Source: Candidatus Endomicrobiellum cryptotermitis
GTDB lineage: Bacteria > Elusimicrobiota > Endomicrobiia > Endomicrobiales > Endomicrobiaceae
DNA: 64,000 nucleotides
NCBI GenBank assembly: GCA_031257835.1
Contig: JAIRNY010000012.1
Location: 1 to 64,000, forward strand
Reading direction: 5' to 3'
Below the pieces are notes generated by a model that made no database searches, was not told where the DNA came from, and saw nothing but the letters and a program-made list of their open reading frames with translations. Below, one piece after another: positions 25,186 through 37,327 of this stretch (position 1 is its first letter; every line of letters starts with the position of its first letter). The position numbers were made by a program, and so were the translations under genes.

Positions 25186-27353
25186 TTAAATTTTCACTTG
25201 GGGAGGTATTACAATAGAAGATTGATACGGCCATCTTTCGACTTCATAAGATTTTTCGTCAACACTAACTACAAATTCAATGTTATCGTAATTGGAAGGG
25301 AAATTAAAAGTTTCAAAGGGTATAGACATTTCTACACTTTTCCCGAAAACAGATTTTGCAAGTTGAGCAATGCTTTCCTTGCCATTATGCACAATAGTGA
25401 TACTTTTTTGTGTGTTTGTTTGTGGCAATTTTTAAAACAACTTTCACTTCTACAGGTCTAATAAATATCAAGTTAAAAGTATACTCTTCTAATAATTTTA
25501 CTATATTTTGTTCATTTAAAGCAAGTTTTAAATAGAAATTTTTAATATCAAATCCAAAGTTAAAAGACTTTAATATTGTAGAAGTTTGGTGCATAGAATC
25601 ACCAGCATGCCCAATTTCATAGTACCTTGAATTTTTCCACTCAAAAAAATCAGTAATAGTTCCATCAATTTTTGGGGATATAAAATCTTGCGGTTTTACA
25701 ATTTTGTTCTGCTTGTTTTGGGTACTTTTTATAGCTTTATAAAAAACAGCTGGCACATCTTGTCCTAAAATCTTGTATATTTTTATTACAATGTTGCCTA
25801 TAAATAAAGTCAAACTTACTATCACTGCTAGAAGAATGGTCATCTCCGTACCACCAGTTCCAATCTGAACCTTGAGCAATATGTAAGTTATCTTTATCTA
25901 AAACATCTTTTTCTATATCTGTTCCTTTAAGCTCTGGGTGTTGGTTAAAATAATTTTGAATGAAGACCCTTGTAACAGCCATATATCCCAAGAAAGATTA
26001 TCTTCTGGGTGCCCTATCCAAACACCAAAATTTCCATTGATCCACGACCCTGCAGTTAAATTCGTTATCGTATCACTGGGCGGAAATTTTTCAAGGTACT
26101 GGCTTATTCTTACAGTTTCTATGTCAGGCTCGGCGCTTAATCTTTCATACAACGCTTGTAAAAAATTCCAACCATCATTTAAATAATGTTCCCAACAATT
26201 GTCTCCATCTAAAATAACAGAAACCAACGGAGCTTCATAAATACTAGAAGCATATTCGCCTATATTTTTTACTTTGTTTATAAAATCATTAGCAGCATCT
26301 TGTGGATTCCATTTTGAGTAGACAAAACCTATAGAATCAGATAGACTATGGTCTCTAAATATTATATTTAAGTTTTTGCCGTTAATATTCAATTTAAATG
26401 GTTTAAACAAATGTCTTCTATCTCCATTAAGGTGTTTTACACTATTGAACAAAACTGCCTCGTCTGTAGCTATCCATTTTAAGCCTGCATCGCTAATTAG
26501 TTCAACTGCAACATTAGATACAGACCCTTCAGATGGCCACATTCCTAAAGGCTTTCTGCCAAAAAGATTTTCATAGATAGTAAGATACGGCATTGCTTAT
26601 ATGCCATAAAGCGTCTTCAGGATAAGCAAACCTTTTAGATGGAAGGTTAATTTTTGGCGTTGATTCAAGGGCAGAGTTTGTATCGCACAAAAGGGGAAGT
26701 ATTGGATGATAAAACGGCGTTACAGAAACGTCAATTTGTCCTCTGTCTTGCAACTCTTTATGTTTTTTTACAACCATACCACAAATTTCAGTGTGTTTTT
26801 GTATAAGTTTGTTTTTTTCTTCTTCTGTAAAATTTCTAGATTTGCTATATAGATAAGCTATAAAGTCGTCATTTTTACGCCAATATGGATCTGTCCAAGA
26901 CAAGTTAAACCAAACCTGTAAATCTCTGAAATCTTCTACAGTAAATGTTTTACAGACATTTTTAATTTCATCATTTTTAAAAGTCTCTCTACCTCTTTTT
27001 CCCAAAAGTTCATTGTACCTATTATATGGAGCAATCATTGTGTCCCAATTAGTCATAAAAAAGTTGCTTAAAACAAAAAATTTGTCTTCTTCTTTTAAAG
27101 TTACTTCCAAAAACTTATCTTTTGCTTTTCCAGAAGCATACTCTTCAAGCTGAATAAGCAGTGAAGGGGCTAGATTTATGTTTGACTTGATTTTTGGATA
27201 ATTATCTAATATTGCAACCATATCGTAATAGTCTTTAGTTGCATGCACCATTACCCAAGGAAGTTCATAAATTCCTGTGATAGGATTTTTATAAACTGGC
27301 TGATGTTGATGCCATAAAAATGCAAGGTAAACTTTTTTCATTTTAAAACACAA
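25186..27353 (-). pseudogene. Glycoside hydrolase family 57, broken in four or more places
   Basis: The first 260 codons (27353 to 26571) are open: YLAFLWHQHQPVYKNPITGI, the GH57 His motif, through FRDLQVWFNLSWTDPYW. The frame shifts near 26590 and continues with GRKPLGMWPSEGSVSNVAVE, the nucleophile region, and VILDGDNCWEHYLNDGW, the acid/base region. Further shifts occur near 25960, 25810 and 25440. The tail carries FWRGIGHAGDSMHQT-like and beta-rich sequence ending at 25186. Intact relatives are cytoplasmic alpha-glucan enzymes of about 700 residues. The breaks argue that glycogen or maltodextrin use through this enzyme is lost. Confidence 0.85.
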
Positions 27354-27553: not shown

Positions 27554-29014
27554 CTATTTTTTTTGATTTTTCTTGCCTTTAACTTTATAACCATTTGTCT
27601 CTATGACAGCGTATTGACGTATTGGGCCACCGTTTCTTTTAACATTTATAACTTCTGCATTCTCTATAGAATTAAAGTCTTCATCTAGATGGTTGTCAAT
27701 TTTTACTATTGCAGTTTTTGAAATTTCTAAATCTTTAGGGAGACTCCAGTATGCAAACTGATTTTGTCTATCGTTATCTACTACAACACCTATTTTGCCT
27801 TTTGTATAGTAAGCTATTACAGCTCCCCATTGATGAGAATTTGTTACCGCATATTTAACATCTCTATGTAAAATATTATTACCTAACTCTTGCCAGCCTG
27901 TAAACCAATTTGTTGCATCAGCAATTGCAGCTTTCTTAGAGAATCTGTAAATAGGGAATAATGCATACTTTATATGTAAACCTAAAAATATTGAAACTAC
28001 AAAATTGAAGGCCAGCCCAACTAAAAGAACCTTCCTTCTAAGTTTAGATTTTGAAGAAAGTAAATACTGGGCAACCATTATACTAAAAGCAAAATAAGCA
28101 AATGCAGGCCAATTGGCACCAGGGTAGCTCTTTAGTGCAGTAACTATAAATATGGCTATTATGGGAAAAGAAAAAGAAAATAAGAACCTATGCTTATGAT
28201 GATATGATATATTTTTAGATTTTAAATAGTATATAGAAGCAACGATACCTGAAACAAAAACAAACGGGCCTACTATTAAACATTGCGAACCCAAATATTC
28301 AAACAGATAATTTAAATGTAATTTATTGCCAGACAATCCATGGTTAAATTGAAAAGTAAAAGAAATCCATTCATTGTGAGAGTTCCAAATAATAACGGGC
28401 AAAAAAATTATAAAAGATATAACGAACATAAAATAAAAATGTTTATTTTTCAGCCATTTTAATTTTCCGTCTAACAACATATACACAGCCAAACTTAGCA
28501 CAAACAAAATTGCAGTATACTTTGAAAGAAACGATAATCCAAGGAAGAAACCTGTTATGTACCAATATTTTGTTTTGCTGGACTCTATTAAGCTCCATTG
28601 ATAGTACACAGCAAACGCAAAAAACAGAAAAGCAGGCGTATCAGGCGTAATTATTATAGAGCCAACCAACGTAAGGGGCAACGTGTTTAAAACAATAACA
28701 GAAGCAGAAGCAACTGTTTCATCTTCATGAAACAATTTTTTCGCAAACTTCCATACCAAAATACTTAACATTACTGTTACAATTATAGAAAAAAATCTAA
28801 CAGCAAGCTCGGAGTTTGATAATAGCGTAGTAATTTTTATAAACCACGCAACCATAGGTGGATGATCATAATATCCAAATGCTAATCGCTTTGACCAAAG
28901 CCAATAATATGCTTCGTCTGGGTGAAGGGAAGTAGTTGCAGATAAAAAGATTTTAAGTAAAATTATAAAACTAACCAAAAAGAACGTGTTCTTTTTGTTG
29001 AAAATCTTTTCCAT
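27554..29014 (-). CDS. GT39-family membrane glycosyltransferase (ArnT/PMT-like)
   Basis: A 486-residue polytopic membrane protein of the GT-C fold. The first periplasmic loop holds the catalytic-type acidic motif HPDEAYYWLWSKRLAFGYYD with HPPMVAW, standard for GT39/ArnT relatives. About ten hydrophobic helices follow, and a periplasmic C-terminal domain of about 130 residues. Such enzymes move a sugar from a polyprenyl-phosphate carrier onto lipid A, glycan or protein on the outer face of the inner membrane. Donor could come from the GT2 at 31908. RBS GGGGAG precedes the ATG. It is related to the N-terminal part of the fusion protein at 32611, which shares the DEA...DHPP pattern. Confidence 0.82.
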   Translation of the reverse strand: MEKIFNKKNTFFLVSFIILLKIFLSATTSLHPDEAYYWLWSKRLAFGYYDHPPMVAWFIKITTLLSNSELAVRFFSIIVTVMLSILVWKFAKKLFHEDETVASASVIVLNTLPLTLVGSIIITPDTPAFLFFAFAVYYQWSLIESSKTKYWYITGFFLGLSFLSKYTAILFVLSLAVYMLLDGKLKWLKNKHFYFMFVISFIIFLPVIIWNSHNEWISFTFQFNHGLSGNKLHLNYLFEYLGSQCLIVGPFVFVSGIVASIYYLKSKNISYHHKHRFLFSFSFPIIAIFIVTALKSYPGANWPAFAYFAFSIMVAQYLLSSKSKLRRKVLLVGLAFNFVVSIFLGLHIKYALFPIYRFSKKAAIADATNWFTGWQELGNNILHRDVKYAVTNSHQWGAVIAYYTKGKIGVVVDNDRQNQFAYWSLPKDLEISKTAIVKIDNHLDEDFNSIENAEVINVKRNGGPIRQYAVIETNGYKVKGKKNQKK

Positions 29015-29109
29015 AAACTCCCCATAGAATTCAAGGACACGAATTTAACACGATTAAATTTTACTATTTTCTTGAAATGTCTATCAAGTTATGCTAATAA
29101 AAGTACGTG

Positions 29110-29424
29110 ATGCTTGATGGTGACAATAGTGTAAGTAAAGAGTTTATTTCAATGTATGTAAAACCTGAGCTAATATTGAAATCTGTGTATACCAAACTTA
29201 AAATCAGTATTTGAAAATTCAGGATACCTTAATGCTGACGCTTTGATGCCAAGACTAGAGTTGTTAACTCAAAAAGTTGCAGGCAAACCAAGAGTAGAAA
29301 TTATACAAAAAATTTATGACGAAAGTGGTCATTCAGACCAAGCTAAAAAGTTTATTAATGAAAATAGCATTAAAAATAGTGACGGAAAGATAGTAGGTTT
29401 AAATCCTGGTGCGCTTGATAAATA
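29110..29424 (+). pseudogene. Unidentified decayed gene
   Basis: A short frame from ATG 29110 (MLDGDNSVSKEFISMYVKPE) loses phase near 29200. The sequence continues from NADALMPRLELLTQKVAGKP and EIIQKIYDESGHSDQAKKFI to GLNPGALDK at 29424. It is hydrophilic and helix-rich with no recognised domain. Some later stretches up to 29600 (KTNNGENFVKVTINEYGEQ) read like protein too. It could be a phage-type structural or accessory gene, but this is a guess. Confidence 0.35.
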
Positions 29425-29739
29425 AGAGCCCAAGCATCAGAATAGCTAAGACTAATAATGGCGAGAACTTTGTTAAAGTCACAATTAACGAATATGGAGA
29501 GCAGCAGTTGGATTTGTGCAATAAGGGGAACGCAGTCAGAACTTACTACAAACTTTGCAACAAACTTTGCAGAAAGATATTAATGCGGCATAATGATGAT
29601 TAACCCTATATATCAGGCATCAAGAATTTTGATGAGAAGGTAGACTTTCTAAAAATGCTCCACAAAGTGTATATAAACGACATTCCTTTGGTACTAGTTT
29701 AATATTAAGTACAAGAAAAGACTAAAAAAGATGACATAG

Positions 29740-30200
29740 TCATTTTTTAAGAGCTTTTATTTCAGTAAGTGACAATTCAGTACTTTTAGCAATCAAGTCC
29801 ATATCTATCCCTAATTTTAAGAGATTTTTCGCTATTTCAACCCTCCCCTCTTCTCTACCCTTGTCCATCCCTTTCTCCATCCCATCCTTAAACGCGTCTC
29901 TACGGTCACTAACAAAGTCTCTTCTTGCTTTCTCTGGTGTCATTGCTGCTATCTTCATTTGCATACTTGCACTTATAAGGAATCTGTCAATCTAAAATCA
30001 AAAAATGTCTGATAAATTTGTAAAAATATCTACTCCTTCTTCAAACTACTTTCCTACCTATATCTACAATACCAACTTGGGTTGTTTGATGTTTTCAAGT
30101 ACAACTTTTTAATTCTCTTAGCAACATCCTGATTGATATTCTTGTTTAATAACTTTATCTCCACCACAGCATTAATGGAACTAATGAAGAACGTTAAAGC
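29740..30200 (-). pseudogene. Rpn-family recombination-promoting nuclease, decayed
   Basis: The C-terminal part is open from 29964: EKARRDFVSDRRDAFKDGME, then KGMDKGREEGRVEIAKNLLK. This is the charged, helical tail of PD-(D/E)XK transposase/Rpn proteins, ending IAKSTELSLTEIKALKK. Farther upstream on the minus strand the piece INAVVEIKLLNKNINQDVAK fits the N-terminal domain. Stops and frame changes separate the two. Rpn proteins are RecA-independent DNA nucleases often expanded in host-associated bacteria. Confidence 0.7.
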
Positions 30201-30231
30201 TATATCTTAAGCAGCGTAAATGTAGTTTTAG

Positions 30232-30251
30232 AACCTGACTTGACCGGCTTT
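30232..30251 (+). repeat. Copy of the TACCTGACTTGACC repeat
   Basis: AACCTGACTTGACCGGCTTT matches the MITE end consensus closely in the left-end orientation. It lies beside the Rpn relic. No right end was found. Confidence 0.5.
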
Positions 30252-30325
30252 GAGGCAAAAAAGGGATTTTATATGCTTTTGTACCAAATATCCTATCAGT
30301 TTTCAAATCCATTAAGATTCCCTAG

Positions 30326-30717
30326 ATGGGGAAATATTTTAATGAAAGAGTTGTGATATTCTTGAGATTTACTAAGAGAATGATTTTGGTGAGTTTCAAA
30401 AGAGTAAATCATGGAGTATTGTTCAATAGCGAATCTTTTAAAGAAAAGAATGAACAAAAAGATGGCGAGCAAGATAAAGATTACATGACAAGGCTTGAAA
30501 AAATGGCTAAAGCTCAAGCTGCAATGGAATTTGATTGGAGTATAGGTTTATAGCAAAGATGGTGGATACTTTACATTATGATGAAGATTTGGTAGAACAA
30601 GAGAAATTATTTGTGGGACTTTTAGGTGATGCCAATATTAATTCTGAAGCGATGGTAAGCAGATATAGAAACGTTAGAGATATAGTAGAATCAAGTGTGG
30701 ATATTGGAGTTCTTTAA
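30326..30717 (+). pseudogene. Unidentified decayed gene, two frames
   Basis: The first frame runs from about 30326 to 30553 and ends KDYMTRLEKMAKAQAAMEFD. After a shift near 30540 the second frame reads IAKMVDTLHYDEDLVEQEKL ... INSEAMVSRYRNVRDIVESS and stops at 30717, 13 bp before the GT9 gene. The sequence is hydrophilic and acidic. No family recognised. The join is smooth, so one frameshift in a small helical protein is the simplest reading. Confidence 0.35.
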
Positions 30718-30729
30718 GAATACCGAGAT

Positions 30730-31860
30730 ATGAAAAACTTTACAGTAAATACCGACTGCTTAAATTTTCCACTAGATAGACCTTGTTTTTATCAGAAAAA
30801 TAGTGGCATTTTATGCAACCAGTGCAATGACTACAAAAAAATTTCAAATTTACAAGAAAATAAACGCATTTTAATTATAAAGCTTGGCGCAATGGGCGAC
30901 GTTTTAAGAACCACGTTTTTGCTTTGGGGGTTAAAAGAACTTTATCCAAAAAGTGTAATATCTTGGATTGTTGACGACAAGAATGCTGCGGTTCTTGAAA
31001 ACAATACATTTATAGACAATATTGTCGCAAATGATGAAAACACACTAAAATTCCTTATAGACAACTATTTTGATGTTGTTATAAATCTAGATCTTGCCTT
31101 TGAGAGCTTATCTCTTGCCAAATTATCAAATAAAGCAAAAGTTTTAGGTTTTACATTAGATAATAATAGAAACATTATTGCTTCTAGCCAATCTGCTCAA
31201 GAATGGCTTAAAATGAGCGTTTATGACGAATTAAAAAAGAGCAATTTGTTTACATACCAACACTGGATGGCGCAAATTGTGTCATTGCCAAAGGATGACT
31301 ATGAAATAATAGTCCCTCTCCAAAAAGAATCACAAGAAAAAGCTTTAAAGTTTTTAGATACTAACAACGTATCTTTAAATAAAAAGATTTTAGGCATAAA
31401 TCCTGGAGCTGGCAAAAGATGGAACTTAAAAAAGTGGACTTTGGAAAGTTTTATTGAAATTGCAGAATATTTCTCAAAAAAAGGGCATGTTATTTTATTG
31501 TTAGGTGGTAAACAAGACGAAAGGGAAATAGAAACTATTTTAAAAGAGAATATTTCTAATGTAATATCTGCTGGAACAAATAATACAATTGCAGATTTTT
31601 TTGCACAAATAAACTTGTGTAATACTGTCCTATGTGGTGACACAATGGCTTTACATGCCGCGTTAGGTCTTAAAAAAAACGTTGTAGCGCTTTTTGGACC
31701 TACATCTATTAATGAAATAGAAGTGTACTCTAGAGGTACAAAAATACAAGGTAAAAAAGATTGTATTACATGTTATAAACAAGAATGTCATTTAGAGAAT
31801 AATTGTATGAAAGCTATCAAACCAAAAGAAGTAATTGAAGCTATAGAACAGTATATATAA
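30730..31860 (+). CDS. Glycosyltransferase family 9 (heptosyltransferase-like)
   Basis: A 376-residue GT9 enzyme. After about 38 residues with four Cys it shows RILIIKLGAMGDVLRTTFLL, the classic N-terminal glycine loop of heptosyltransferases, then INLDLAFESLSLAKL. The C-terminal half has LGINPGAGKRWNLKKW, LLLGGKQDE, the donor-site pattern CGDTMALHAALGLKKNVVAL and LFGPTSINE. A Cys-containing tail (DCITCYKQECH) ends it. Expected role is addition of heptose or a related sugar to LPS core from ADP-sugar, which would use the product of the rfaE2-type adenylyltransferase at 53523. It heads the envelope cluster 30730-34749. Confidence 0.83.
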   Translation: MKNFTVNTDCLNFPLDRPCFYQKNSGILCNQCNDYKKISNLQENKRILIIKLGAMGDVLRTTFLLWGLKELYPKSVISWIVDDKNAAVLENNTFIDNIVANDENTLKFLIDNYFDVVINLDLAFESLSLAKLSNKAKVLGFTLDNNRNIIASSQSAQEWLKMSVYDELKKSNLFTYQHWMAQIVSLPKDDYEIIVPLQKESQEKALKFLDTNNVSLNKKILGINPGAGKRWNLKKWTLESFIEIAEYFSKKGHVILLLGGKQDEREIETILKENISNVISAGTNNTIADFFAQINLCNTVLCGDTMALHAALGLKKNVVALFGPTSINEIEVYSRGTKIQGKKDCITCYKQECHLENNCMKAIKPKEVIEAIEQYI

Positions 31861-31907: not shown

Positions 31908-32606
31908 ATGAAAACTGTAGTTATGATTCCAACATACAATGAAGTTTCTAATATAGAAAAAGTAATTTGTGATGTTTTAAAAAGTGTGCCAAACGCAGAG
32001 GTATTAGTTGTAGATGACATGTCTCCAGACGGTACATATAAAGTAGTTGAAAAATTAGCTACTAAAAATAGTAAAGTTCATCTTTTGTTAAGAAAAGAAA
32101 ACAGAGGTAGAGGCTATGCTGGAAAAGATGGTTTTGTTAAAGCCTTAGACATCAATGCAAACTTTGTTGTTGAAATGGACGGAGACGGGTCCCATGATCC
32201 TAAATATATATCTGAATTTTTAAAACTTATAAAAGATTGCGATGTTGTTATAGGGTCTAGATATGTTAGTGGTGGCAAAGATGAAGAAAGAACTTTACTT
32301 AGAAAACTGGTAAGCAAATTTTCAAGATTATACATATCTGCAATTTTAGGCGTAGATATAAAAGATCCATCTTCAGGCTATAGGATGTTTAAAAAAGATA
32401 CGCTTAAAAAATTTGTAAATGAATTAAAAGCCAGCGACCCTTTTATAGTGACAGAAGTTATATACCAGCTAAAGAAGAACAATTTAAAAGTAAAAGAATC
32501 GCCTATAGTTTTCCTTAAACGTTTTTCTGGAGAATCTAAATTAAGACCAATAACTTTAATTAAATATTTGTTTAAAGTATTAAAATTGAAAATGTTAGGA
32601 CAATAA
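31908..32606 (+). CDS. Polyprenol-phosphate mannose/glucose synthase (GT2)
   Basis: A 232-residue cytoplasmic GT2 enzyme of the DPM1 type. The fold opens with VVMIPTYNEVSNIEKVI. VLVVDDMSPDGTYKVVEKLA supplies the first Asp motif, and FVVEMDGDGSHDPKYI has the metal-binding DGD. CDVVIGSRYVSGG and DPSSGYRMFKKDTLKKF follow in standard order. No membrane helices are seen, as in DPM1 of bacteria. It would load mannose or glucose from the nucleotide sugar onto undecaprenyl phosphate. The GT39 fusion protein starts 4 bp downstream, so donor synthase and user enzyme are probably made together. Confidence 0.88.
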   Translation: MKTVVMIPTYNEVSNIEKVICDVLKSVPNAEVLVVDDMSPDGTYKVVEKLATKNSKVHLLLRKENRGRGYAGKDGFVKALDINANFVVEMDGDGSHDPKYISEFLKLIKDCDVVIGSRYVSGGKDEERTLLRKLVSKFSRLYISAILGVDIKDPSSGYRMFKKDTLKKFVNELKASDPFIVTEVIYQLKKNNLKVKESPIVFLKRFSGESKLRPITLIKYLFKVLKLKMLGQ

Positions 32607-32610
32607 TTGT

Positions 32611-34749
32611 ATGAACTATAGATTATGGTTTTGGGCTTTAAACGTTTTCTCAAGTGCTATTAGGCTATTGATAATAGGGAAAGTAGGGCTTACAATAGAT
32701 GAAGCCCACTATTTTACCTATACGAAATATTTAAGCTTATCTTATTTTGATCATCCTCCGCTAATAGCATACTTAATTAAAATGTCAAACCTCGTTTTTC
32801 AAAACAATATAGAATTTGCAGTCAGGTTCCCAGTAGTTTTAATTTTCTTTTTATCAAGTTGGATTTTTTATATATGTGCAAAAAAACTCTACAATGAAAA
32901 AACTGCTTTTATTAGTGTTTTACTGTTAAACGTTATACCTGTATTTTCTTTTCTTGGAGCAGTAGTAGCAGTTCCGGACTCCCCTTTAGCACTCTTTTGG
33001 CTTTTATCATTATTTGCTTTTATCAAAGTAATAGAAACATCTAAGGGTAAATTTTGGTATTTGCTTGGCATTTGCACAGGTTTTGCAATGCTTTCTAAAT
33101 ATAATGGTGTTCTACTGCCAGTATGTGCAGCTTTGTTTCTTGTTTTGTCCAAAAAGTACAGGTTCTGGTTTACAAGGAAAGAACCATATATTGCTGTTTT
33201 TATATCTTTTATAATGTTTTTGCCGGTAATTGTGTGGAACATACAAACCAATTGGGCATCTTTTGGGTTTCAGCTTAGTCATGGATTTGGCAATTCGATC
33301 CCAAAATTTTCTTTTAATTTACTAGCTAAAGCTTTAGGAGCGCAAGCTGGATATATTTCTCCTTTATTATTTTTAACTTTTATAGCAGCTACTTTCTTGT
33401 GCTTGAAAGACATATTTAAGAAAAAAGACGAAACCTCTTTATTTATTGTCTGTTTTTCTGTTCCAGTACTTTTTTTATTTAATTTTATTGCAACTTTTCA
33501 TGAGATATTACCTCACTGGCCTGTTATGGGATATTTAGTGCTTTCTGTTTATGTGGCCAACTTAACGCTAAAATTTTGGAACATAAAATGGTTTAAAAGA
33601 TACTCTTATTTGTCTTGGGGTCTGGCAGTATTTATGGTTGTTATTGTTCCTTTGCATATTCTTTATGGCATAGTGCCAATAAAAAAGTTTTTACCTCAAA
33701 AGCAAATAGAAAATGTAAAGCACGCCATTTCTGAAGCTGAAAGGATAGATATTACAAACGAAGTTTACGGTTGGAAAGAAGTAGGAGCTGAAATAGAAAA
33801 AATTTTAGATTCTCATACTAGAGACAACAAACCTTTTATTTTTACTTATAAAAGTTACCTTGCTAGTGAGCTTCAATATTGTGTTCCAGCCCTGAGAGTG
33901 TTTTGCATAAGCGATAGTCCTAACGCCTATAACTTTTGGCAGACAGACTTAAAAAAGTTTAAAAACAAAGATGGCCTATTTATTTGTAACGATTTCTTTT
34001 TTGCTAACCCCCAAGACAGGTATGGCAACCAAGCATTTGCATCTTATGAGGAAGTAAAAATATTGCCAATTTACCGAAACAGCATAAAAGTAAAAAATTT
34101 CTTTTTTACTTTATGCAAATCATTTAATCCTTCAAAACTTCCTGAAGAATATTCTAAAAGTTATACAAGTAAAAAAAATAATATATTTAAAGAATTAAGA
34201 AGGTATAACTATGCAATATTTGAATTTATTAACGGTTCTTTAAAATGTAAGATTTTAGATTTCTTTATGGCTCCTATCTCTTATTGTGATTCTAAGGATT
34301 TTAATATTAGTTTTTTTGTAATTCTTATAATATCTTTATTAATACTATGGCAAACTAAAAAAGACACTTTTTGGACAAACTTCGTACTTTTAGCAAGCGT
34401 CTTAGCTGTTGGTTCTGCTATAGTCTATTTTATGAAAAATTATTTTGGAAGACCTCGCCCTTTATCTGTATTTGGAAACGAAAGCGTGAATACGCTTTAT
34501 GAGCAAATACACAGAAACTCCTTCCCGTCTGGGCATACAGAAATAGCTGTTGCAGTGTGCACATTTATGTTTATACAAGTAAAGAAGTATTGGTATTTAT
34601 ACATATTTTTTGGTATTTTTTCAGGCTTTTACAGAATATATGCAGGAAGTCATTTCCCGTCAGACGTTTTTTTTGGAGTTTGTATAGGTGTTTTTTCTGC
34701 TTACATTGTCGTTGAATTGTTTAAAAAACACATCAGACATCCGCTATAA
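32611..34749 (+). CDS. GT39 glycosyltransferase fused to a PAP2 lipid phosphatase
   Basis: A 712-residue membrane protein with two enzymes. Residues 1 to about 500 are a GT39/ArnT-like transferase: TIDEAHYFTYTKYLSLSYFD with HPPLIAYL, then many membrane helices. Residues about 555-712 are a PAP2 phosphatase with all three catalytic motifs: KNYFGRPRP near 610, FPSGHTE near 639 with the general His, and YRIYAGSHFPSD near 675 with the nucleophile His. Helices lie in between. A fusion could couple sugar transfer from a polyprenyl phosphate to phosphate removal on a lipid (undecaprenyl pyrophosphate, or lipid A phosphate as in LpxE/F). The stop is clean and no frameshift joins the parts, so it is a true single gene. 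Confidence 0.88.
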   Translation: MNYRLWFWALNVFSSAIRLLIIGKVGLTIDEAHYFTYTKYLSLSYFDHPPLIAYLIKMSNLVFQNNIEFAVRFPVVLIFFLSSWIFYICAKKLYNEKTAFISVLLLNVIPVFSFLGAVVAVPDSPLALFWLLSLFAFIKVIETSKGKFWYLLGICTGFAMLSKYNGVLLPVCAALFLVLSKKYRFWFTRKEPYIAVFISFIMFLPVIVWNIQTNWASFGFQLSHGFGNSIPKFSFNLLAKALGAQAGYISPLLFLTFIAATFLCLKDIFKKKDETSLFIVCFSVPVLFLFNFIATFHEILPHWPVMGYLVLSVYVANLTLKFWNIKWFKRYSYLSWGLAVFMVVIVPLHILYGIVPIKKFLPQKQIENVKHAISEAERIDITNEVYGWKEVGAEIEKILDSHTRDNKPFIFTYKSYLASELQYCVPALRVFCISDSPNAYNFWQTDLKKFKNKDGLFICNDFFFANPQDRYGNQAFASYEEVKILPIYRNSIKVKNFFFTLCKSFNPSKLPEEYSKSYTSKKNNIFKELRRYNYAIFEFINGSLKCKILDFFMAPISYCDSKDFNISFFVILIISLLILWQTKKDTFWTNFVLLASVLAVGSAIVYFMKNYFGRPRPLSVFGNESVNTLYEQIHRNSFPSGHTEIAVAVCTFMFIQVKKYWYLYIFFGIFSGFYRIYAGSHFPSDVFFGVCIGVFSAYIVVELFKKHIRHPL

Positions 34750-35000: not shown

Positions 35001-36023
35001 ATGGGTATGTTTAAACCAAAATATACTTTAACAAAAAAATTGCTTGAAAATGTTTCTGCTGTAGAGCGATTATATGGACAAATTGAACAGTTACGTTTAC
35101 CTAGAAGCTTATGGTTAAATTTAGAGCAGGGCAACCTTATACAATCAGCATATGTTTCAAATAGTATTGAAGGTAACTCTCTATCCTTTGTTGAAGTTAC
35201 CAATTTATTATTAGGAGGTAGAATTCCGGCAACACGGGATGAAAAGGAAGTTGCTAACTATTTTGGATTATTAAGACAGTTGACATCTTTTAAATCGTTT
35301 GACATAGCTACTTTGTTAAATATACACAGACAACTTCTTGCTGGAGTTAATGATAAAATTGCTGGAAAGATTAGAAATAGTGCTGTAGTGGTAGCAAATC
35401 ATGTAAAAACATTTAAAGGTGTAAAACTTATTATTAAACATAATCCTCCTTATCATAAACAAATGGAAATCAGAAAGCATTTACAATATCTTCTAAAATG
35501 GGCTAGAGAAGATGATCAGACAATTCCTATTTTAAAGGCAGGCATATTTCATCATCAATATGTCTATTTGCATCCTTTTGGTGACGGTAATGGCAGGACT
35601 TGTAGATTACTAACTGCTTTATTTTTAATACAAAACGGATATCTTATTAACAAATATTTTGTCCTTGATGATTACTACGATACTGATAGAGCTCTCTATT
35701 CCAACAAGTTGTCTATTGCCGATTCTGGAAATGTAAGCGCATGGCTTGAATATTTTACAGATGGTATAAGATATTCATTGCAAAGTGCAATTTCTAAAGC
35801 AGAAAATTCATTGTCACAAATTGCTGTGTCTATGAGGCCGACACCAAGAGAAGCGCAAATTTTAGAGAAATTTGTGAATATAAGAGAATTTAGAGTAAAT
35901 GATATTACCAAATTCTTAAAAGTTTCTAGGCAACAAGCTAACAATCTTTTAAGGGGATTAATAGAAAAAGGGCGTATTGAAAAACATGGAATAACTAAAG
36001 GGGTTTTTTATAGAATCTTGTAA
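35001..36023 (+). CDS. Fic family protein (Fic/DOC AMPylase-type)
   Basis: A 340-residue Fic protein. The N-terminal helix region has YVSNSIEGNSLSF, close to the inhibitory (S/T)xxxE(G/N) motif of self-inhibited Fic proteins. The core motif HPFGDGNGRTCRLL near residue 193 has the catalytic His and the ATP-binding residues. A winged-helix domain is at the C-terminus (REFRVNDITKFLKVSRQQAN). Such enzymes transfer AMP to a target protein. The complete motif suggests activity. The target is unknown. It is an intact accessory gene flanked by a short repeat upstream and an ATPase relic downstream. Start could be 35001 or the second ATG at 35007. Confidence 0.85.
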   Translation: MGMFKPKYTLTKKLLENVSAVERLYGQIEQLRLPRSLWLNLEQGNLIQSAYVSNSIEGNSLSFVEVTNLLLGGRIPATRDEKEVANYFGLLRQLTSFKSFDIATLLNIHRQLLAGVNDKIAGKIRNSAVVVANHVKTFKGVKLIIKHNPPYHKQMEIRKHLQYLLKWAREDDQTIPILKAGIFHHQYVYLHPFGDGNGRTCRLLTALFLIQNGYLINKYFVLDDYYDTDRALYSNKLSIADSGNVSAWLEYFTDGIRYSLQSAISKAENSLSQIAVSMRPTPREAQILEKFVNIREFRVNDITKFLKVSRQQANNLLRGLIEKGRIEKHGITKGVFYRIL

Positions 36024-36172: not shown

Positions 36173-37327
36173 ATGGCTGACTTAGAACGTACTTTAAGTA
36201 AATTATTGAAAAAACTTCAAAAGGTTTTAGAGTAGTTCTTTTAAATGGGCAAAGGCAAGTTGGTAAATCGACTTTGCTTAAAAAGATGTCTGAAAAAACA
36301 AATCGTAATTATGTTTCTCTTGATAACATGAAGTTTCGTCAACTGGCAAAAACTGATCCAGAACTTTTCTTACAACAAAACCCTCCTCCGACAATTATTG
36401 ACGAAATACAATATGCGCCTGAGTTGTTCCCTTATATAAAACTTTCTGCTGACCAGAACCGTAATATTAAAGGGGCGTTTTGGCTTACAGGATCTCAAAA
36501 ATATAAGTTAATGGAAGGGGTTAAAGAATCTTTAGCCGGGCGTATAGCAATTCTTGATCTTATGGCAAATTAAAAAATATAAAAAAATTAACAATCCAAG
36601 AAGTTTATAAACTAATATGGGAAGGACAATTACCTGAACCTGTAGTTGATAAAAATATTGATCGAGAACAATACTATAGCTCATACATACAATCTTATAT
36701 TGATAGAGATGTAAAAGATTTTTATAATATAGAAAAACCATACAGTTCTTTAATTTCGTTTCAGTAGCTGCTGCACAAACAGGGAAACTACTAAATTACA
36801 CTTCACTTGCTCGAGATGTGGGTGTAGATGTAAAAACTGCCCAAGTTTGGATGGGAATATTAGAACGTTCTGGACTTGTGTATCTCTTGCAGCCGTATTC
36901 TCCTAATATAACAAATCGTATAATAAAAACTCCAAAAATGTATTTTTTAGATACTGGGTTATGTTCTTATCTTACACGTTGGAATACCCCAGAATCTCTT
37001 ATGAGCGGAGCAATGGACGGCGCATTGCTTGAAACTTACGTTGTTGGCGAAATTCTCAAATCATACTTTCATAACGGAAAAGAACCTGTTATGTATCTGT
37101 ACCGAGATGTAGATCAAAAAGAAATTGATATAGTTATAGAGTAAAATGGGACTCTCTATCCAATAGAAATTAAAAAAACTGCAAATCCACAAGCTTTTGA
37201 TTACAAGTATTTTAACCAAATAAACAAATTGAACAAAAAGGTTGGAATAGCAGCAATTGTTTGTCTACAACCTGAACGTATTCCATTAAGCCGCGATGTT
37301 GTATCTATTCCTGCCTGGGAGATATAA
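36173..37327 (+). pseudogene. AAA_14/DUF4143 ATPase, frameshifted
   Basis: Opening MADLERTLSKLLKK runs into a stop at 36232. The next frame gives VVLLNGQRQVGKSTLLKKMS, an intact Walker A, and PPPTIIDEIQYAPELFPYIK, Walker B, then FWLTGSQKYKLMEGVKESLA. A second shift near 36570 leads to LWEGQLPEPVVDKNIDREQY. A further shift near 36760 leads to the C-terminal half with VDVKTAQVWMGILERSGLVY and FLDTGLCSYLTRW. A stop at 37142 precedes the nuclease-like end YPIEIKKTANPQAF. Four lesions, otherwise full length. It is the closest to complete of the family members here. Confidence 0.85.

What the first reader, a model, noticed from the sequence alone, without database searches (positions are those of the whole stretch)
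32611..34749. GT39 glycosyltransferase fused to a PAP2 phosphatase
One 712-residue protein holds a GT-C sugar transferase and a lipid phosphatase with all catalytic motifs, and lies 4 bp after a polyprenol-phosphate sugar synthase. The pair could make and use a lipid-linked sugar and then process the lipid phosphate in one complex, for instance recycling undecaprenyl carrier or trimming lipid A phosphate before adding sugar.
Basis: partly seen in the sequence, partly recalled or inferred. Interest (0 to 1): 0.6.

Follow-up and report, generated by a model that had tools for sequence, protein, structure and literature searches.

The report
Sugar transferase fused to lipid-carrier phosphatase
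The fused gene is real and old, and in this group of termite-gut bacteria its phosphatase half appears to be the only enzyme left that recycles the lipid carrier used to build the cell wall: it survives intact even where the sugar-transferase half it is joined to has decayed away.

Summary
The fusion is real. It is one 712-aa frame, PMT_2/GT39 plus PAP2, 4 bp after a GT2 gene. It is conserved across the bacterial order, including the complete E. proavitum chromosome, and in one related family GT2 is fused in as well. The window genome belongs to the genus of Endomicrobium/Endomicrobiellum, mostly termite-flagellate symbionts (Elusimicrobiota). BacA/UppP, the usual undecaprenyl-pyrophosphate (Und-PP) phosphatase, is found in none of 42 genomes of the genus, although 28 of 35 other same-family genomes have it. 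PAP2 occurs essentially once per genome, and that copy is this gene. In at least 18 of 35 sequences from the genus the GT39 half is truncated, missing or stripped of its motif. The PAP2 half keeps all 10 catalytic residues in every one. It also persists where lipid A synthesis (LpxC, LpxB) is broken or undetected, while UppS and, where recovered, MraY remain. Best reading: an LpxE-type PAP2 domain, possibly once part of an LPS glycosylation enzyme, became the sole Und-PP phosphatase after BacA loss, and the transferase half is now dispensable. This is inferred from comparative genomics; no enzyme assay was possible.

The parts
32611..34749 (+). GT39::PAP2 fusion protein, 712 aa
   Evidence: full-length relatives
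32611..34140 (+). GT39 (PMT_2/ArnT-like GT-C) half, about residues 1-510; PMT_2 core residues 47-209
   Evidence: Foldseek ArnT 5f15
32698..32703 (+). D30-E31, presumed catalytic acidic pair of the GT39 half; lost in several relatives
34183..34746 (+). PAP2 (LpxE-like) half, about residues 525-712
34435..34461 (+). PAP2 motif C1 KX6RP (K609, R616, P617)
34525..34536 (+). PAP2 motif C2 PSGH (639-642)
34633..34665 (+). PAP2 motif C3 RX5HX3D (R675, H681, D685)
31908..32606 (+). GT2, DPM1-like polyprenyl-phosphate sugar synthase (232 aa), 4 bp upstream; fused in frame to the GT39::PAP2 protein in family f8 of the class
   Evidence: PDB 5mlz E 6e-28; triple fusions
30730..31860 (+). GT9 heptosyltransferase-like gene (HEP), first gene of the conserved HEP-GT2-GT39::PAP2 operon
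   Evidence: synteny
27554..29014 (-). Second, stand-alone GT39 paralogue on the opposite strand, conserved neighbour in most operon-bearing genomes of the genus

Best explanation
The gene encodes two periplasm-facing membrane enzymes in one chain. The N-terminal GT-C half (ArnT/GT39-like) transfers a sugar from undecaprenyl-phosphate, charged in the cytoplasm by the adjacent DPM1-like GT2, to an envelope acceptor, probably LPS core or lipid A given the heptosyltransferase-like first gene of the operon (inferred). The C-terminal PAP2 half, closest to LpxE, dephosphorylates undecaprenyl pyrophosphate to undecaprenyl phosphate. In the window's genus, and separately in E. proavitum and at least two other lineages, BacA/UppP is missing, leaving this PAP2 domain as the only recognised Und-PP phosphatase (shown: gene absence and presence; inferred: activity). 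It therefore became essential for peptidoglycan. In flagellate endosymbionts the GT39 half decays while the phosphatase half is kept under purifying selection, in the end as a stand-alone phosphatase of about 200-330 aa (shown by sequence). Physical coupling of the two activities is not needed for the retained function.
For: BacA in 0/42 genomes of the genus against 28/35 other same-family genomes and 223/295 of the phylum sample. 36 of 42 genomes have a PAP2, one each except for a second sub-threshold match in G027; it is this gene or its C-terminal remnant. All 10 PAP2 catalytic residues intact in 42/42 sequences while GT39 motifs are gone or changed in at least 18 of 35 from the genus. GT/PAP rate ratio 0.75-0.88 with intact GT39 against 0.87-1.27 with broken GT39, and dN/dS about 0.2-0.6 for PAP2 in broken lineages. 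At least 6 changes of GT39 state on the PAP2 tree. PAP2 kept where LpxC and LpxB are broken (G065) or not detected intact (G007, G028, G032, G035); all but G035 keep UppS and MraY. PgpA present in 31/42, including nearly all PAP2-only genomes, so PGP phosphatase is not the reason. E. proavitum (G080): no BacA, single PAP2 = the full fusion. LpxE enzymes are known to dephosphorylate Und-PP and rescue E. coli lacking this activity (PMC6581854). Endomicrobiellum retains peptidoglycan synthesis, while many members lack key LPS genes (PMC11257099).
Against: No enzyme assay. PAP2 specificity cannot be read from sequence; the SepP (Und-PP phosphatase) model hits far below its cut-off (44 of 250 bits). 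An unrecognised Und-PP phosphatase family could exist. G004 (94% complete) has neither BacA nor PAP2, although its whole locus, GT39 neighbour included, is missing and may be an assembly gap. In G025 the PAP2 frame has no standard start codon before the domain. Most genomes are incomplete MAGs. The rate comparison is not corrected for phylogeny.
Confidence: 0.68

Rival explanations
1. Lipid A phosphate-for-sugar exchanger: the PAP2 half (LpxE) removes the lipid A 1-phosphate and the GT39 half attaches a sugar at the freed position, as in lipid A species where a sugar replaces phosphate.
For: PAP2 half nearest to LpxE 6ebu; operon with a heptosyltransferase-like gene and GT2; [quoted passage not shown] GT2-GT39-PAP2 triple fusion implies one pathway.
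Against: PAP2 half is retained without GT39 and without LpxC/LpxB. May hold for the ancestral, intact fusion, but not for the role that is retained.
Confidence: 0.3
2. PAP2 half is retained as a phosphatidylglycerol-phosphate phosphatase (like PgpB, YodM or HupA) rather than an Und-PP phosphatase.
For: LpxE and YodM resemble this domain and act on PGP.
Against: PgpA is present in 31/42 genomes, including nearly all PAP2-only ones; BacA loss would leave Und-PP phosphatase without any candidate.
Confidence: 0.1
3. The fusion is an assembly or frameshift artefact, or a neutral join with no function for either half.
For: MAG origin of the window.
Against: Same fusion in a complete isolate chromosome and many assemblies; purifying selection on both halves in intact members.
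Confidence: 0.01

Closest known systems
LpxE (lipid A 1-phosphatase, PAP2; Aquifex aeolicus 6ebu), which also dephosphorylates C55-PP
   Same: Best sequence and fold match of the C-terminal half (E 2e-25 by profile; TM-score 0.81 normalised to LpxE); PAP2 motifs all present
   Different: Stand-alone 180-aa enzyme; here fused behind a GT-C enzyme and apparently the only PAP2/BacA-type enzyme of the cell
ArnT / GT39 (PMT_2) transferases using undecaprenyl-P-sugar
   Same: GT-C fold with a periplasmic domain, DE motif, adjacent DPM-like GT2
   Different: Carries a C-terminal PAP2 domain; sugar and acceptor unknown; sequence match to ArnT itself is weak (E 0.28)
Und-PP phosphatases PgpB, YbjG, LpxT, BcrC, HupA
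   Same: PAP2 route to Und-P on the periplasmic face; in H. pylori the PAP2 enzyme HupA is reported as the main Und-PP and PGP phosphatase (PMC6748449)
   Different: None of these is reported in the literature searched as part of a glycosyltransferase fusion
Adjacent but separate GT39-PAP2 gene pairs in Fusobacteriaceae, Clostridia, Gammaproteobacteria, Sulfurimonas, Pedobacter
   Same: Same two families, often overlapping genes
   Different: Not fused; fusion seen only in Elusimicrobiota loci and one MAG labelled Omnitrophota among the 80 loci examined

Membership tests
PAP2 superfamily, LpxE-like | KX6RP, PSGH, RX5HX3D catalytic motifs | tested here: met
   10/10 residues in 42/42 sequences
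PAP2 superfamily, LpxE-like | Pfam PF01569 above gathering score | tested here: met
   80.9 vs 27.2 bits
LpxE (lipid A 1-phosphatase) | Removes lipid A 1-phosphate | not testable with these tools
   Retention of the domain where LpxC/LpxB are lost shows this cannot be the only role
Und-PP phosphatase | C55-PP to C55-P activity | not testable with these tools
   Indirect only: no BacA, one PAP2 per genome
Und-PP phosphatase SepP (NCBIfam NF047884) | Score above the curated cut-off | tested here: not met
   44.2 vs 250 bits
GT39/PMT_2 transferase | PF13231 above cut-off, GT-C fold | tested here: met
   122.7 vs 26.1 bits; ArnT, AglB and PMT folds
ArnT (L-Ara4N transferase) | Transfers L-Ara4N to lipid A phosphate | not testable with these tools
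   Only a fold-level match to ArnT; no NCBIfam ArnT model among the hits
Polyprenyl-phosphate sugar synthase (GT2, DPM1-like) | GT2 domain closest to characterised DPM synthases | tested here: met
   5mlz E 6.3e-28; NCBIfam equivalog cut-offs not reached, so the sugar is unknown

The most novel reading that the evidence does not exclude
In a whole bacterial genus and in the cultured E. proavitum, bulk lipid-carrier recycling for the cell wall runs through a domain physically attached to an LPS-type glycosyltransferase, so wall-carrier recycling and outer-membrane glycosylation were mechanically linked; BacA could be lost because of this, and the transferase later fell away, releasing a new minimal Und-PP phosphatase gene by domain erosion.
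Probability: 0.35. Interest if true: 0.75.

Novelty: new variant of a known kind. Interest (0 to 1): 0.6.

Why it matters
Und-PP phosphatases are usually redundant (E. coli has BacA plus several PAP2 enzymes), which makes single-enzyme essentiality hard to study. Here the cell appears to rely on one, embedded in a bifunctional protein, in a cultured free-living species and in symbionts at every stage of genome decay. The series is a natural dissection of a fused enzyme: it shows which half selection needs, and how an essential gene can emerge from the ruins of a non-essential partner. It also warns that annotating these genes only as 'glycosyltransferase', or calling truncated copies pseudogenes, would hide an essential function.

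Tried and rejected
Artefact or frameshift: rejected. Direct substrate hand-off from GT39 to PAP2: rejected on chemistry (GT-C enzymes with polyprenyl-P-sugar donors release Und-P) and by GT39-independent retention. PGP phosphatase as the reason for retention: unlikely. Lipid A phosphatase as the retained role: rejected for lineages lacking LpxC/LpxB. A conserved transmembrane-parity rule in the truncated proteins (one N-terminal helix kept): five short forms have exactly one such helix, but G001, G028, G061 and others do not fit, so dropped. Literature searches for a described GT39-PAP2 fusion found none.

Full report
Observation. The window holds one uninterrupted 712-codon frame at 32611-34749 (+). 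Its N-terminal part matches PMT_2/GT39 (residues 47-209, E 2e-35) and its C-terminal part PAP2 (residues 592-707, E 9e-23). It starts 4 bp after a 232-aa GT2 whose best solved relative is dolichol-phosphate mannose synthase (5mlz, E 6e-28). That GT2 in turn follows a GT9 heptosyltransferase-like gene. An AlphaFold model of the whole chain (mean pLDDT 81.5) matches ArnT and oligosaccharyltransferases over the N-terminal half and Aquifex LpxE over the C-terminal half (TM-score 0.81 normalised to LpxE).

Not an artefact. Full-length fusions occur at 59-92% identity in other genomes of the genus and at 44-46% in other families of the order. The gene order HEP-GT2-GT39::PAP2 is kept across the order. 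In family f8 of the class, GT2 is fused in frame as well, giving 925-942-aa GT2-GT39-PAP2 proteins. One carrier (G080) is a single contig of 1,588,979 bp, exactly the published length of the E. proavitum chromosome (PMC4505116). Record titles of close relatives (90% and 86% identical) are Candidatus Endomicrobiellum roisinitermitis and E. incisitermitis, so the window belongs to the Endomicrobium/Endomicrobiellum lineage. Outside Elusimicrobiota the two domains are mostly separate, often overlapping neighbouring genes, for example in Clostridia, Fusobacteriaceae and Gammaproteobacteria. The fusion is therefore most simply a join of an older gene pair.

The phosphatase half stands alone in the cell. 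BacA/UppP is found in none of 42 genomes of the genus, 15 of which are at least 90% complete, but it is present in 223/295 genomes sampled across the phylum and in 28/35 other genomes of the same family. In the family outside this genus BacA is also missing from E. proavitum (G080), G083 and G066, all at least 99% complete. PAP2 is found once per genome in nearly all cases, and that copy is this gene. In G066 the two halves are on different contigs, and the lone PAP2 lies directly behind GT2.

Decay of one half only. Across 35 sequences from the genus, the GT39 half ranges from intact, through full-length but stripped of the DEAHY motif (G013, G033), and internally deleted with changed motif residues (G062, G065), to absent or reduced to a short stub (open frames of 205-330 aa). 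Every sequence keeps all ten PAP2 catalytic residues. Where GT39 is intact it evolves more slowly than PAP2; where it is broken the relation shifts or flips (ratio to outgroups 0.75-0.88 against 0.87-1.27; rank test P about 3e-5, not corrected for shared ancestry). The PAP2 tree requires at least six changes of GT39 state, with two well-supported cases nested next to intact relatives (G029/G008 beside G019; G021 beside G060). In G019 the upstream HEP and GT2 genes are already broken while the fusion is intact.

What the retained activity is. UppS is present in 37/42 genomes and MraY-type enzymes in 33/42, including all the PAP2-only genomes except the fragmentary G035, so Und-PP is made and used; peptidoglycan synthesis is reported as retained in Endomicrobiellum (PMC11257099). 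Lipid A synthesis is not needed for retention: LpxC and LpxB are fragmented in G065 (99% complete), LpxC is a broken remnant and LpxB undetected in G007, and neither is found in G028, G032 and G035, yet each keeps an intact PAP2. The last three are incomplete MAGs, so G065 carries most weight. PgpA is present in most PAP2-only genomes, which argues against a PGP phosphatase role. LpxE-type enzymes are experimentally known to dephosphorylate C55-PP and to rescue E. coli lacking that activity (PMC6581854). The simplest reading is that the PAP2 half is the sole Und-PP phosphatase. Activity itself is inferred.

What the GT39 half does. By family it should use a polyprenyl-P-sugar made by the adjacent GT2. 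The heptosyltransferase-like operon partner suggests an LPS target. It releases Und-P, so it does not feed the PAP2 half. The lipid A 'remove phosphate, add sugar' model remains open for intact members.

Exceptions and limits. G004 (94% complete) shows neither enzyme, but lacks the whole locus. The PAP2 frame of G025 has no standard start codon. Completeness varies. Topology estimates on truncated forms were inconclusive.

Noticed in passing
window 25913-27353 (-): The pair of adjacent ORFs corresponds to one 704-722-aa GH57-type protein that is intact in relatives (L098, L099, L101; the GH57 name is from memory, not scanned), so it is a broken gene in the window; also broken in L100.
   Followed up: partly
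window 29015-30729: About 1.7 kb without a sizeable gene separates the GT39 paralogue from HEP, where relatives have only about 100 bp; it holds short fragments, one (29740-29964, -) resembling the C-terminal part of Rpn/PD-(D/E)XK transposase-like proteins (resemblance from memory, not tested). Looks like decayed mobile DNA.
   Followed up: partly
L084-L088 (family f8 of the class): GT2-GT39-PAP2 triple fusion of 925-942 aa, putting donor synthesis, transfer and phosphatase in one chain.
   Followed up: partly
L121:2956-6408, L122:2986-6450: 1151-1155-aa forms with a further C-terminal region weakly matching a PHP (phosphoesterase) domain after PAP2.
   Followed up: no
L184, L185 (G066): The fusion is split: HEP-GT2-PAP2 on one contig and a GT39-only gene on another; BacA is also absent.
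   Followed up: partly
window 35001-36023 and 36274-37144 (+): A Fic-domain protein with a MarR/TrmB-like C terminus, followed by pieces that look like a broken ATPase gene.
   Followed up: no
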